The notes below the pieces were generated by a model that saw only the letters and a program-made list of their open reading frames with translations, was not told the DNA's origin and ran no database searches. From Pseudoleptotrichia goodfellowii (GTDB lineage: Bacteria > Fusobacteriota > Fusobacteriia > Fusobacteriales > Leptotrichiaceae): a DNA stretch of 64,000 nucleotides. The translations under genes and the position numbers were made by a program. The stretch's first letter is position 1. Each line of letters begins with the position of its first letter. Below, piece by piece: positions 44,930-54,382 of this stretch. The DNA lies in assembly GCF_007990505.1 (NCBI RefSeq), contig NZ_AP019822.1, positions 992,001 through 1,056,000 of the forward strand, written 5' to 3'.

Positions 44930-46072
44930 ATGAGTACGGAAAAAAAAGAAGAAATTATAAACAAAGTTAAAAATATACAGAAAGATTTGATAAATTCAAT
45001 CAGAGAGTTGGTAGCTGTTTACAGTATTGAAGGAACTTCTTCGGAAAGTGCACCGTTCGGGGAAGGTCCTCTTGAAGCACTTCATAAAGTTTTAGATATA
45101 GCTCAAAAAATGGGATTTCATATTGAAAATATTGATAATAAAATAGGATATGCACAGTACGGAGAAAGTGAAAATGATGAATATATAGGAATTTTCGGAC
45201 ACGTAGATGTCGTACCTTTGGGAGAAGGCTGGAAACACGAACCGCTAAAAGGAGAAATCGAAAATAACCGTATTTACGGACGAGGAGTTTTGGATAATAA
45301 AGGTCCGATTTTAGCAAATTTATTTGCACTGTATATATTGAAAAAATGCGGTGTAACTTTTGATGTTCCTGTAAGAATTGTATTCGGAACAAATGAAGAA
45401 ACAGGATTTAAGTGTGTAAAACATTATATGACAAAAGAGAAACCTCCTGTTTTCGGTTGGACACCTGATTGTAAATGGCCTGTGGTATATGGTGAAAGAG
45501 GCAGACTGAAAGTAAGAGTTTCTGCAGAAAATAAATATATTGAAGAACTTTATAATTTTGTCAATGACTATATTCTGTCTGCACCGAATAACGGAGTAAA
45601 ATTGGGTATCAATTTTAAAGATGAAGACTTCGGTGAAATGATAATGAGAGGGTATAAATTGGGAGTTTCCGAAAATCAAAATTATTTTGAATGGGCAATG
45701 AGCTATCCTGCAATTTGTACAAAAGATGAATTAATAAAGCTGATAAAAGAGAAATTATCCGATAATCTGAAAATAGAAGAAATTGCCAACTGGAATCCTA
45801 TATTGTATGATAAGACTTCAAAATATGTAAAGACATTGCAGAAAGTCTATAATGATGTAACAGGATTCGATTCAAAGCCTGTTACTACAACAGGCGGAAC
45901 ATACGCAAAAATTATTCCGAATATTATTGCTTACGGACCGAGTTTTCCAGGGCAAAAAGATATCGCACATCTGCCCGACGAATGGATGGATTTGGATGAT
46001 TTGGAAAAGATTACCGAAATATACGCATTGGCATTGTATGAAATAAGTAAACTTAAAAATAAAAAAGAGTGA
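44930..46072 (+). CDS. M20-family dipeptidase (Sapep/PepV type)
   Basis: This 380-residue zinc dipeptidase has FGHVDVVPLGEGW, IYGRGVLDNKGPILAN, IVFGTNEETGFKCVKHY (Glu pair) and VTTTGGTYAKI. It is shorter than PepV (about 470 residues); the central lid domain looks reduced. It would cleave dipeptides in the cytoplasm. TTTGGAGG precedes the ATG and it begins one base past the asparaginase stop. In this operon it could release glycosyl-asparagine from a dipeptide, which is inference. Confidence 0.82.
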   Translation: MSTEKKEEIINKVKNIQKDLINSIRELVAVYSIEGTSSESAPFGEGPLEALHKVLDIAQKMGFHIENIDNKIGYAQYGESENDEYIGIFGHVDVVPLGEGWKHEPLKGEIENNRIYGRGVLDNKGPILANLFALYILKKCGVTFDVPVRIVFGTNEETGFKCVKHYMTKEKPPVFGWTPDCKWPVVYGERGRLKVRVSAENKYIEELYNFVNDYILSAPNNGVKLGINFKDEDFGEMIMRGYKLGVSENQNYFEWAMSYPAICTKDELIKLIKEKLSDNLKIEEIANWNPILYDKTSKYVKTLQKVYNDVTGFDSKPVTTTGGTYAKIIPNIIAYGPSFPGQKDIAHLPDEWMDLDDLEKITEIYALALYEISKLKNKKE

Positions 46073-46259
46073 TTTGAAAAGTAATATAAGTTCAATTCTA
46101 TTTTCTTGAAAATATGGTTTATATAAAAAAAGAAAAAATATATTTTGATAATATTATTTTATATTATAGGTATATTTGCTTGAATTTATAAGGTTTATAT
46201 GGTAAAACTTACTTGAGTTGAAGGTTAAACAGAAATTTAGAAGAAAGGAGGAAGCAAAT

Positions 46260-46736
46260 GTGAAACAGAAATTTTTAGTATCGGTAATTTTAATTTTATG
46301 TTTCGGATTATCATTTGCAAATATGAAAATGAATATGAAAGACAATATGATGATTGATAGTGAATATATTCAGAAAAAAAGTTCTTATAATTTTAAAGAA
46401 ACTGTTGAAAATGTAAAAAAAAGAATAATTGAAAAAGGCGGAACAATATTTTATATTTCGGATCATAAAAAAAATGCTGACGAAGTTCATTTGGAATTAA
46501 GACCTGCAACAGTTATTATTTTTGGAAATCCTTCTGTGGGAACATTCCTTATGCAGGAAAATCAAAAATCAGCTTTTGAATTACCTTTAAGAATATTAAT
46601 TTATGAAAATGAGAAAGGCGAAGCTGAAGTAATTTATTATAATGTAAAATTATGGGAAAAGAAATTCGGAATAAAAAATAAAAAAATCTTAGCTAATATA
46701 GCAAATTTATATGATTATATCGTACCTTCAAAATAA
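46260..46736 (+). CDS. Exported DUF302-like protein with Met-rich segment
   Basis: This protein of about 158 residues starts with GTG after GAAAGGAGG (an upstream in-frame ATG at 46218 lacks a site). A signal peptide (MKQKFLVSVILILCFGLSFA) is followed by NMKMNMKDNMM, a Met-rich stretch, then a DUF302-like fold: YNFKETVENVKKRIIEKGG, then HLELRPATVIIFGNPSVGTFLMQ and LPLRILIYENEKG. DUF302 proteins have an unknown, possibly redox- or metal-related role. The next gene has a similar Met/Asp/Lys segment. Confidence 0.7.
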   Translation: MKQKFLVSVILILCFGLSFANMKMNMKDNMMIDSEYIQKKSSYNFKETVENVKKRIIEKGGTIFYISDHKKNADEVHLELRPATVIIFGNPSVGTFLMQENQKSAFELPLRILIYENEKGEAEVIYYNVKLWEKKFGIKNKKILANIANLYDYIVPSK

Positions 46737-46797
46737 ATTTAATAAACCGTTTTACAAAACCTGAAAAACAAAAACCATTAAACCGAGGAGACAGACT

Positions 46798-47409
46798 ATG
46801 AAAAAAATACAGATAAAACTTATAACAATTTTGAGTTTATTTACTTTAGCGATTTTAGGATGTGCAAAAGAAAGTACCGCAAAGACAATGAAAGATAATA
46901 TGAAATCGGATATGATGAAAGACAGTATGATGACGAAAAAAACTCTGGTAGTTTATTATTCATTGACAGGAACAACAGAAAAAGTGGCCGAAATGATAAA
47001 AGAAAAATTAGGAGCCGATATTTTAAAAATCGAGCCTGAAAAAGAATACGATACATCTTCAGTTTCTAAACTGGAAGCATTAGTAAAAAAACAAATGGCA
47101 AATAAAGAAAAAGTTGCGATAAAAAAAATAAACAAAGATATTTCAGAGTATGATACTATAATAATAGGAACGCCTGCATGGTTTTCAGAAGTAGCTTTAC
47201 CTGTACAGACATATTTATCCGAACAGAATTTGTCTGATAAAAAAGTTGCAGTATTTACAACTTATGGAGGAACATACGGGAATTTACTGATAAATTTTGA
47301 AAAAAATATAAAAGCCAAAGAAGTTAAAAAAGGAATAGCATTCAGCGGAAAACAGGTAAAAGAGGGAATTGATAAAGAGCTTAATGCCTGGATTGAAACT
47401 TTAAAATAG
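46798..47409 (+). CDS. Flavodoxin-fold lipoprotein with Met-rich linker
   Basis: This 203-residue protein begins with a lipoprotein signal, lipobox LAILGC (Cys22). A Met-rich linker (MKDNMKSDMMKDSMM) leads to a flavodoxin domain: LVVYYSLTGTTEKVAEMI is the FMN-phosphate loop, and YDTIIIGTPAWFSEVALPV and FTTYGGTYGN are flavin-edge loops. It would carry FMN electrons outside the inner membrane, an unusual place. Its redox partner is unknown. GAGGAGA precedes the ATG. It is 61 bp after the DUF302 gene and probably cotranscribed with it. Confidence 0.8.
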   Translation: MKKIQIKLITILSLFTLAILGCAKESTAKTMKDNMKSDMMKDSMMTKKTLVVYYSLTGTTEKVAEMIKEKLGADILKIEPEKEYDTSSVSKLEALVKKQMANKEKVAIKKINKDISEYDTIIIGTPAWFSEVALPVQTYLSEQNLSDKKVAVFTTYGGTYGNLLINFEKNIKAKEVKKGIAFSGKQVKEGIDKELNAWIETLK

Positions 47410-47432
47410 ATAATAAAATTATAATTATAAAT

Positions 47433-47484
47433 AAAAAGGAGTTGTTGAAATTGGAATTTTCCATACTTTAACAGCTCCTTTTAA
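47433..47484. terminator. Bidirectional terminator after the flavodoxin gene
   Basis: AAAAGGAGTTGTT (47435-47447) pairs with AACAGCTCCTTTT (47470-47482), apart from one or two mismatches, and the arms end in A and T runs on both strands. Confidence 0.75.
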
Positions 47485-47493
47485 AGTTATTGT

Positions 47494-48075
47494 TTAGATT
47501 TCTCTCTCAAAATCGTGTTTTATAAGTTCTATAAGGGTAAATTTTCCGTTTTCATATTCATATTTAAAAATAGAACAGTTGGGAATTCCTGAGAAAGGGA
47601 AATCAGGGGCATGTTTAAGCATAAATGTATAACAGGCTCCGCCGTGACTGACTGCAAGAACTGTTTCGTGATTTTCTCTTTCCATAATTTCTGTTAATGT
47701 TTCAGTCATTCTTTGTTCTACCTGTTTTCCGGATTCGCCTTTATATTTTACAAAAAACTCGCTGTAACTTTCCCGAGGCGGATTCAAGTCTTCACTTTCT
47801 CCTTCAAACAAACCGAAATTCCATTCTTTAATTCCTTTAAGTCTTTCATAGGGCATTTTAAAATCAGTAACAATCTCCAGTGTGTCGCTTGCCCGTTCCT
47901 GTGTAGATGAGTAAGCATGATCAAATTTTACTTCATTTGATTTAAAGTACAGTCCTGCAATTTCAGCCTGTTTTTTACCTTCTTCTGTTAAAGGAGAGTC
48001 GCACGCTCCCTGAATTTTCTTTCTGAAATTAAAAAGTGTCTGTCCGTGTCTCATCAAGTATAATGTCTTTTTCAT
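47494..48075 (-). CDS. Histidine phosphatase (phosphoglycerate-mutase-like)
   Basis: This 193-residue protein starts LYLMRHGQTLFNFRKKIQG, the phospho-histidine loop RHG. A second catalytic region (AVSHGGACYTF) carries the second His. LTEEGKKQAEIAG and YSSTQERASDT (second Arg) are typical. It removes phosphates from a small molecule; sugar phosphate or alpha-ribazole phosphate are both possible. AAGGAGG precedes the ATG. It lies 21 bp after the AraC gene on the same strand and is probably cotranscribed. Confidence 0.82.
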   Translation of the reverse strand: MKKTLYLMRHGQTLFNFRKKIQGACDSPLTEEGKKQAEIAGLYFKSNEVKFDHAYSSTQERASDTLEIVTDFKMPYERLKGIKEWNFGLFEGESEDLNPPRESYSEFFVKYKGESGKQVEQRMTETLTEIMERENHETVLAVSHGGACYTFMLKHAPDFPFSGIPNCSIFKYEYENGKFTLIELIKHDFEREI

Positions 48076-52169: not shown

Positions 52170-54382
52170 ATGATAAAATACAGTGAAAAAAGCCGGGAAT
52201 TTTATCTCGGTAATGAGCATATAAGTTATATAATCGGAATACTCCAAAACGGTCATTTGGGACAATATTATTTCGGGAAAAAAGTCCGATACAGGGAAGA
52301 TTTTTCACATTTGTTTGAAAAAATCGGTGGAGAACCTGCGATTACTCCTTCTACGGACGGAAAAGGATTTTCTCTTGATATGATAAAACAGGAGTATCCG
52401 AGTTACGGTACAGGAGATTACAGAGAGCCTGCATTTGCTGTTTTGCAGGAAAACGGCAGCAGAATAGTCGACTTTAAATATAAAAGTCATTCAATTAAAA
52501 ATGAAAAGAAAAAGTTGACGGGATTGCCTGCTGTTTATGCAAATGAAGATGATAAAGTCGAAACATTGGAAATTATTCTTGAAGATGAAGTAATTGATGC
52601 AGAACTGATATTAAGTTATTCAATTTTTGAAAAATATTCTGCAATAATGAGAAATGTAAAAATCATAAATAAAGGAAATCAAAAACTGAATATAGAAAAA
52701 ATAATGAGTGCATCTCTGGATTTGCCCGATTCGGAATATATACTCACACAACTTAGCGGTGCATGGGGAAGAGAAAGATATGTAACAGAACGGGAAATAA
52801 AAAGAGGAATAACTGTAATAGACAGTAAAAGAGGGACAAGCAGTGCTTTAAACAATCCTTTTATAAGCCTGAAAAGAAAAAATACTACAGAAACTTCGGG
52901 AGAAATAATAGGACTTAATCTTATATACAGTGGAAACTTTTCGACGACAGTAGAAGTAGATCAGTATGATGTTACAAGAGTAAATATAGGAATAAATCAT
53001 TTTGACTTTAACTGGCTTTTGGAACCGGGTCAAGAATTTCAGTCGCCTGAAGCGGTTCTTGTATACTCCGATGAGGGGATAAACGGAATGAGCCTTACTT
53101 TCCATAATTTATATAAAAATAATTTGATAAGAGGAAAATATAAAAATAAAGCAAAACCTGTATTATTGAATAACTGGGAAGGTACGTATTTTAATTTTAA
53201 CGAGGAAAAGATACTAAAAATAGCTGAAGATGCGAAAAAACTCGGAGTGGAATTATTTGTTCTGGATGACGGATGGTTCGGAACGAGAAATGATGATTTT
53301 CAAGGACTTGGAGATTGGGAGCCGAATTTGGAAAAACTTCCTCACGGGATAAAAGGTTTGGCAGAAAAAGTAAATCAAATGGGAATGAAATTCGGATTAT
53401 GGTTCGAGCCTGAAATGGTAAATAAAAACAGCGATTTATACAGAAAACATCCCGACTGGATAATATCGACTCCCGACAGATTTGAAACGCCGGGAAGACA
53501 TCAGCACACTCTGGATCTGTCGAGAAAAGAAGTGGCAGATTATGTGTATGAATCTGTTGCACGAAATCTGAGAGAATCAAACATAGAATATGTGAAATGG
53601 GATATGAACAGATGTATGACGGAAATATATTCCAAAGGAAGATGTGCATGCAGACAGAAAGAAACGGCTCACAGATATATTTTAGGACTTTATTCGGTAC
53701 TTGAAAAAATAACACAGGAATTTCCTGATGTACTTTTTGAATCCTGTGCAAGCGGAGGAAACAGATATGATCCCGGAATGCTTTATTATATGCCGCAAAC
53801 TTGGACAAGTGATAATACCGATGCTGTAGACAGACTGAAAATACAATACGGAACATCTATGGTATATCCTGTACCTTCACCCATGTTTCCATAACTCCGA
53901 ATCATCAGACTTCAAGAAATACGAGCCTTGATATAAGAGGAAACGTAGCGATGTTCGGTACATTCGGATATGAAATGGATCCGAAAGATTTGAGCGAAGA
54001 AGAAAAAGAGAAAGTAAAAGAACAGATAGAAGAATTTAAAAATTATAGAGAGCTTATAGCTGAGGGAGATTTTTACAGGATAAAATCACCTTTTGAAAGT
54101 AATGATACAGTTTGGATGATGGTAAGCAAGGATAAAAAAGAAGCATTAGTAGGATATTACAGAAAATCGGTCGAAGTGAACGAAGGATTTAAAAGAGTAA
54201 GGCTGACAGGATTAAATGAAAATCTTGATTATACAGTAAATAAGAAAAATAAAGGCACCCTCAATAAAGTCGGAGGAGATGAGCTTATGAATGTCGGACT
54301 ATTTATAGGAGAAGCAAATACAGAGCATAGAGATATGCAGGGAGATTACTATACTGAACTGTATTATTTGAAAGCCGAGTAA
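52170..54382 (+). pseudogene. Alpha-galactosidase, GH36, one frameshift
   Basis: This GH36 enzyme removes alpha-1,6-galactose from raffinose-family sugars. LDDGWFGTRNDD, the nucleophile in YVKWDMNR (Asp478), and the acid/base in WTSDNTDAVDRLKIQYGTSM (Asp548) are intact. The frame ends at 53894 just after YPVPS. The rest (HVSITPNHQTSRNTSLDIRG, from 53882, to 54382) is in the next frame. One base added to the CCC at 53880-53882 restores SPHVS; a larger loss of the common SMGAHVS spacing is also possible. The full length is about 737 residues. The stop removes the C-terminal beta domain. Confidence 0.85.

What the first reader, a model, noticed from the sequence alone, without database searches (positions are those of the whole stretch)
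46260..47409. Adjacent exported DUF302 and flavodoxin proteins share a Met-rich segment
Right after their signal sequences both proteins carry MK-D-N-M-type repeats (NMKMNMKDNMM and MKDNMKSDMMKDSMM). Such Met clusters can bind copper(I) or take part in methionine oxidation. An exported flavodoxin is unusual in itself. The pair may be an envelope redox or metal-handling unit.
Basis: partly seen in the sequence, partly recalled or inferred. Interest (0 to 1): 0.5.

Follow-up and report, generated by a model that had tools for sequence, protein, structure and literature searches.

The report
Methionine-rich tails on exported redox proteins
Two neighbouring exported proteins of a Leptotrichia-like bacterium carry the same kind of floppy methionine-rich tail as the cell's exported methionine-repair enzyme, which suggests that the tails soak up oxidants and are then repaired, rather than that they hold copper.

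Summary
The DUF302 protein (46260-46736) and the flavodoxin lipoprotein (46798-47409) each carry a hydrophilic Met/Lys/Asp/Asn segment right after the signal sequence. In 600 kb of the same genome sampled elsewhere, 76 of 76 exported-like ORFs have at most 2 Met in the 30 residues after the signal; these two have 5 and 6. One more such protein (6 Met) was found: the exported fused methionine sulfoxide reductase MsrAB, about 1 Mb away in an msrAB-ccdA-trx-two-component locus. Its tag is kept in both other held species of the genus.

In one sister species the gene pair is syntenic, the flavodoxin is duplicated, and the DUF302 tag sits at the C-terminus. A tagged exported MsrAB also occurs in one species of another fusobacterial family. 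Outside the genus, 0 of 79 DUF302 relatives and 0 of 7 exported flavodoxins have the tag.

Best reading (inferred): MrpX/MXKDX-like sacrificial methionine tails, oxidised by HOCl or peroxide and re-reduced by the tagged MsrAB. Copper binding is not excluded but has no support from context. Neutral low-complexity drift is the main rival. What DUF302 and the exported flavodoxin do remains open. New variant of a known kind.

The parts
46260..46736 (+). DUF302 gene, exported protein of 158 aa (GTG start)
   Evidence: PF03625 4.6e-17; model mean pLDDT 88.5, best folds 7tj1 Z 19.1, 1q9u 17.7, 1j3m 15.2
46260..46319 (+). signal sequence of the DUF302 protein, residues 1-20 (by eye)
   Evidence: sequence; helix 4-23 in the model
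46320..46352 (+). Met-rich segment NMKMNMKDNMM of the DUF302 protein
   Evidence: pLDDT 51 for residues 21-30, below 50 at 27-30; weak 12-nt tandem repeat at 46320-46350, score 41
46461..46640 (+). DUF302 domain, residues 68-127
46737..46797 (+). 61-bp gap between the two genes; co-transcription is inferred
46798..47409 (+). exported flavodoxin (lipoprotein) gene, 203 aa
   Evidence: PF12682 8.8e-18; best solved relative 4ici 3.8e-33
46798..46863 (+). signal sequence and lipobox LGC, residues 1-22 (by eye)
   Evidence: sequence
46888..46932 (+). Met-rich segment MKDNMKSDMMKDSMM of the flavodoxin
   Evidence: residues 12-45 below pLDDT 50 in a weak single-sequence model
46960..46977 (+). SLTGTT loop, residues 55-60, in the place of the flavodoxin FMN-phosphate loop (role recalled)
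   Evidence: S55, G58 and T60 invariant in 10 of 10 rows of A3
47436..47480 (+). possible terminator, AAGGAGTTGTT...AACAGCTCCTT, by eye; loop too long for the scan, which found none in 46000-47600

Best explanation
The segments are disordered, sacrificial methionine tails on exported proteins. In the envelope their methionines react first with HOCl, peroxide or similar oxidants and become methionine sulfoxide. The exported MsrAB, itself tagged and fed electrons by its co-encoded CcdA and thioredoxin, reduces them back. The tails thus work like the free MXKDX/MrpX scavenger peptide of Proteobacteria, but fused to folded redox proteins, so the buffer sits on the proteins it shields. Shown: the segments, their rarity, the tag on MsrAB in three of three species, the synteny with one congener, and the move of the tag within DUF302. 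Inferred: that the tails are oxidised, that MsrAB reduces them, that this protects the cell, and that the pair is co-expressed. The partner reactions of DUF302 and of the flavodoxin are unknown.
For: (1) Rarity: 76 of 76 other exported-like ORFs in 600 kb have at most 2 Met in the 30 residues after the signal, against 5, 6 and 6 for DUF302, flavodoxin and MsrAB. (2) The third tagged protein is the enzyme that reduces Met sulfoxide: PMSR 3.4e-56 plus SelR 1.2e-48, followed by DsbD_TM, redoxin, response regulator and histidine kinase, the same five kinds of gene as the F. nucleatum msrAB locus, which is needed for peroxide tolerance (PMC9239216, passages). (3) MsrAB linkers in the genus hold 18 Met in 125 residues over 3 species, against 14 in 308 over 11 other Leptotrichiaceae linkers. 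(4) Recurrence: 5 of 52 MsrA N-termini from 51 of 52 loci read have at least 4 Met in 20 residues: the three of this genus, G032 and G071; the second, untagged MsrAB of G071 has only 16 residues before its MsrA motif and no signal. (5) Tails move while staying: N-terminal in the window's DUF302, C-terminal in G002; and the G002 PEBP-family protein has a leader DNA akin to the DUF302 leader (score 91, best of 100 shuffles 36) plus a Met-rich tail. (6) No ordered motif: no helical Met face in 9 of 9 tails; low pLDDT. (7) Precedent: Met-rich MXKDX proteins BcrX/MrpX are reported to scavenge hypochlorite with a periplasmic Msr (PMC8315932; PMC4623255; passages).
Against: No oxidation or protection data. 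msrAB is 1 Mb away and no shared regulatory motif was found (only four A/T-only 10-mers in all six upstream regions). The N-terminal DUF302 tail is missing in G001 and G002 (G001's C-terminus lies off its contig). The untagged MsrAB enzymes of most relatives presumably work. The tails are short (5-6 Met). The NCBIfam library gave no match for either tail at E <= 10, so kinship with the MXKDX family is by look only. Tag profile A5 missed MsrAB in its own genome. Two weak DNA repeats in the DUF302 tail fit slippage.
Confidence: 0.5

Rival explanations
1. Neutral or nearly neutral low-complexity expansion: after-signal linkers in an A+T-rich genome grow by slippage of ATGAAAGAT-like units and have no function.
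For: M, K, D, N all have A/T-rich codons; a 12-nt tandem repeat scores 41 in the DUF302 tail; the tail is lost or moved between congeners; linkers are free to vary.
Against: 76 of 76 other exported-like ORFs of the same genome do not do this; related A+T-rich genera have K/N-rich linkers with 0-2 Met in 10 of 11 MsrAB cases and 0-1 Met in 7 of 7 flavodoxin cases; the MsrAB tail TKNMNKKDGxMM is kept in three of three species.
Confidence: 0.22
2. Cu(I)/Ag(I)-binding tails: the methionine clusters hold copper in the envelope, as Met sites of CusF, CopA or CueO do, and the pair is a metal-handling unit.
For: Met clusters bind Cu(I) in CueO and CusF (PMC9302797, passages); the spacing MxxxM and MM occurs in both tails.
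Against: The neighbours identified (peptidase, histidine phosphatase, AraC regulator; msrAB-ccdA-trx-kinase) are not copper genes; the tails have no His or Cys; a tag on MsrAB is better explained by oxidation. I did not search the genome for copper genes. Copper and Met oxidation are linked in E. coli, so both may hold.
Confidence: 0.12
3. Docking or switch tails: the Met segments bring flavodoxin, DUF302 and MsrAB together, or switch their activity when oxidised.
For: Same kind of tail on enzyme and candidate substrates in one compartment; opposite charges are mixed in each tail.
Against: No common order of residues and no helical Met face in 9 of 9 tails; the tail can sit at either end of DUF302.
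Confidence: 0.12

Closest known systems
MrpX of Azospira suillum / BcrX of Brucella (Met-rich MXKDX repeat peptides; PMC8315932 and PMC4623255, passages; Melnyk 2015 not held)
   Same: exported, hydrophilic, Met/Lys/Asp-rich; part of a Met sulfoxide cycle in the envelope
   Different: here the repeats are short tails on folded proteins, mostly 4-residue spacing, and the reductase is a thioredoxin-type MsrAB, not MsrPQ; not gene neighbours
Fusobacterium nucleatum msrAB-modRS locus (PMC9239216, passages)
   Same: fused MsrAB, CcdA-like, Trx-like, response regulator and histidine kinase
   Different: gene order differs; the genus here adds a Met-rich tail to MsrAB. The F. nucleatum strain of the paper was not itself compared
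DUF302 family PF03625 (solved: 7tj1, 1q9u, 1j3m)
   Same: domain and fold
   Different: Met tail absent from 79 of 79 non-genus relatives read
Flavodoxin_4 PF12682 (solved: 4ici, 4j8p, 3klb)
   Same: sequence family and phosphate loop
   Different: exported lipoprotein with a Met tail; exported but untagged relatives exist in the family
Met-rich copper sites (CusF, CueO; PMC9302797, passages)
   Same: clustered methionines in an envelope protein
   Different: no copper-gene context, no His/Cys, no order to the Met spacing

Membership tests
DUF302 (PF03625) | match over Pfam's cut-off | tested here: met
   62.1 bits against 23
DUF302 (PF03625) | DUF302 fold | tested here: met
   7tj1 Z 19.1, rmsd 1.6 over 127; 1q9u Z 17.7
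Flavodoxin (Flavodoxin_4, PF12682) | match over Pfam's cut-off | tested here: met
   64.7 bits against 24
Flavodoxin (Flavodoxin_4, PF12682) | binds FMN and carries electrons | not testable with these tools
   S/T-rich loop kept; no structure model good enough
MXKDX / MrpX scavenger peptides | recognised by a curated family model | tested here: inconclusive
   0 NCBIfam families at E <= 10 for each tail; I did not confirm that the library holds an MXKDX model, and 27-28 residues are short
MXKDX / MrpX scavenger peptides | stand-alone small exported peptide | tested here: not met
   tails are fused to DUF302, flavodoxin and MsrAB
MXKDX / MrpX scavenger peptides | operon with msrP/msrQ and an ECF sigma factor | tested here: not met
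   none beside the pair or msrAB
MXKDX / MrpX scavenger peptides | Met oxidised by HOCl and recycled | not testable with these tools
   needs bench work
Fused exported MsrAB of the F. nucleatum kind (L108, outside the window) | MsrA + MsrB domains with CcdA, Trx and a two-component pair | tested here: met
Cu(I)-binding Met-rich proteins | binds Cu(I); copper-gene context or regulation | not tested
   only the neighbours were read; no copper-gene search of the genome

The most novel reading that the evidence does not exclude
A portable antioxidant tail: in this genus short Met/Lys/Asp tails have been added to, moved within and carried between exported proteins (DUF302, flavodoxin, PEBP-family), and to the repair enzyme MsrAB itself, so that the reductase and its clients share one kind of sacrificial, refillable methionine buffer in the envelope; similar tails were gained separately by exported MsrAB elsewhere in Fusobacteriota.
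Probability: 0.35. Interest if true: 0.65.

Novelty: new variant of a known kind. Interest (0 to 1): 0.47.

Why it matters
If true, sacrificial methionine buffering need not be a separate peptide: it can be a movable tail, and the reductase can carry its own. That would explain how anaerobic mouth bacteria shield envelope redox proteins from host oxidants, give a sequence mark for likely MsrAB clients, and give DUF302, a domain without a known function, its first functional lead in an envelope redox setting.

Tried and rejected
Copper unit: no support from neighbours, not excluded. Conserved pair across phyla: rejected; among 80 DUF302 loci with up to 6 kb flanks, 2 have a weak flavodoxin hit (24% and 22% identity), 0 an MsrAB hit, 1 a thioredoxin hit. 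Met-face helix: rejected, lowest count 943 of 5000 shuffles among 9 tails. Shared promoter motif between the pair and msrAB: nothing but four A/T-only 10-mers. Genome-wide tag search by profile: A1 finds the three known tags in the own genome and, in 98 Fusobacteriota at E <= 1, only this genus plus one weak hit in G044 at 0.46 whose protein has no tag near its N-terminus, but it is built from these tags and misses the G071 linker, the G002 DUF302 C-terminus and the G002 PEBP; A5 finds two of three in the own genome. So further tagged proteins in the unsampled 70% of the genome cannot be excluded. Function of DUF302 from fold: besides DUF302 structures themselves no match stands out. Flavodoxin model from a single sequence: mean pLDDT 63, not used for a fold search. 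Papers: 10 searches; six exported-flavodoxin phrases gave 1 paper (listing only), MsrAB + methionine-rich + linker gave 1 (passages, about the MsrA-MsrB linker, not a tail), methionine-rich + Msr + flavodoxin gave 3 (listing), DUF302 gave 27, 25 listed (listing). None of the listed titles and abstract starts describes this; that is not proof of absence. PMC7464077 gave only a reference-list passage.

Full report
Check. The window is G000:C1:992001-1056000 of a 2.29 Mb, single-contig genome. The genus of three held species lies in a family of Fusobacteriota; the sister G001 contig is the MAG 'Leptotrichiaceae bacterium S30M_Sa_2'. That the window's species is Leptotrichia (Pseudoleptotrichia) goodfellowii is my guess from recall, tested by no call.

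Not chance, but not unique by density alone. Met makes up 2.2% of residues in 292 ORFs; 9 of them reach 5 Met in 25 residues, and several of those are hydrophobic stretches. When hydrophobic residues are limited, 4 of 292 ORFs remain: DUF302, flavodoxin, MsrAB and a Gly-Met C-terminus (probably the GroEL tail, from recall). Two samples without the window and the msrAB locus (396 and 204 ORFs, 600 kb) add none but that same C-terminus. Among exported-like ORFs in those samples, 76 of 76 have 0-2 Met in the 30 residues after the signal, against 6, 6 and 5 for flavodoxin, MsrAB and DUF302.

The link to methionine repair. The exported MsrAB lies at G000:C1:2043223-2044341 (L108 7224-8342). After its signal it reads TKNMNKKDGMMMDDKKMTNND. 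It is followed by CcdA (DsbD_TM), a redoxin, a response regulator and a histidine kinase. F. nucleatum has the same five kinds of gene, which respond to and protect from peroxide (PMC9239216, passages). The tag is kept in G001 and G002. In 11 other Leptotrichiaceae MsrAB linkers Met is 14 of 308 residues, against 18 of 125 in this genus; one of the eleven (G032) has 4 in 29. Across the phylum I read 52 loci of fused MsrAB and found 52 MsrA N-termini in 51 of them (one locus holds two, one gave none; some are cytosolic forms). Five have at least 4 Met in 20 residues: own, G001, G002, G032 and G071. G071, of another family, has an exported thioredoxin-MsrAB fusion with a long tail in its linker; its congener G070 has 1 Met in 20 there.

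Conservation of the pair. In G002 the order peptidase - DUF302 - flavodoxin - flavodoxin - histidine phosphatase - AraC is kept; DUF302 is 61% and the flavodoxins 75% and 75% identical. Both flavodoxins keep a Met-rich segment (4 and 5 Met); the second lacks a lipobox. The G002 DUF302 has no N-terminal tail but ends NNMNNMKMNDMKKDNMKNMNKK. G001's contig stops inside DUF302, whose N-terminus has 1 Met. A DUF302 homologue was found in 5 of 60 relatives and the domain in 9 of 98 Fusobacteriota; a flavodoxin homologue in 25 of 60. In 80 DUF302 loci of named genomes none has a hydrophilic Met window (one of the 80 is G001). In the exported flavodoxins of alignment A3, 7 of 7 from outside the genus have 0-1 Met in the linker. 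So the tails are a trait of this genus, not of the families.

Movable tails. The PEBP-family protein of G002 starts with a leader whose DNA resembles the DUF302 leaders, ribosome site included (score 91 to the window's, 83 to G002's own, best of 100 shuffles 36 and 32), followed by a Met-rich tail; the PEBP proteins of G011 and G017 have other leaders without it. The tail was probably carried over with the leader, or arose in a copy; this is inference.

Mechanism. The tails have no fixed order, no helical Met face (9 of 9) and low model confidence in DUF302 (pLDDT 51 for residues 21-30). That fits an oxidant sink better than a binding site. Met-rich MXKDX peptides BcrX and MrpX are reported to scavenge hypochlorite with a periplasmic Msr system (PMC8315932; PMC4623255; passages). 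I propose the same chemistry on fused tails, with MsrAB as the recycler. Only the sequence facts are shown. Against it: no experimental data, no common regulation seen, loss of the N-terminal tail in two DUF302 homologues, short tails, and signs of slippage.

DUF302 and flavodoxin. The DUF302 model is the known DUF302 fold and points to no function. The flavodoxin keeps the phosphate loop; where an exported flavodoxin gets FMN and electrons is unknown. I therefore commit only to the role of the tails.

Verdict. Real and rarer than it looked. Best filed as a new variant of a known kind (sacrificial Met-rich scavengers), with neutral drift as the chief rival.

Noticed in passing
window 52170-54382 (+): The alpha-galactosidase-like ORF (name from recall) is split: against the single 739-aa ORF of G002, residues 1-570 match one frame and 565-739 another, with the break near 53855-53879. 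Real or a sequencing error cannot be told.
   Followed up: partly
L003 / L056 7691-8924: Tandem duplication of the exported flavodoxin in G002; the second copy has no lipobox and so is probably soluble in the periplasm.
   Followed up: partly
L007 982-1602 (-), same as L067 5803-6423: Exported PEBP-family protein of G002 with a DUF302-like leader at DNA level and a Met-rich tail; a case of leader capture.
   Followed up: partly
L249 5877-7418 (-): G071 thioredoxin-MsrAB fusion with a long Met-rich linker, apparently gained separately.
   Followed up: partly
L058 12024-13769 (-): In G011 an exported flavodoxin lipoprotein sits beside an aldo/keto reductase with a lipobox-like leader (PF00248 1e-50): another exported redox pair, without Met tails.
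   Followed up: no
L164 259-1803: In G066 a DUF302 domain is fused to the C-terminus of a beta-lactamase-like (serine hydrolase-like, by eye) protein of 514 aa.
   Followed up: no
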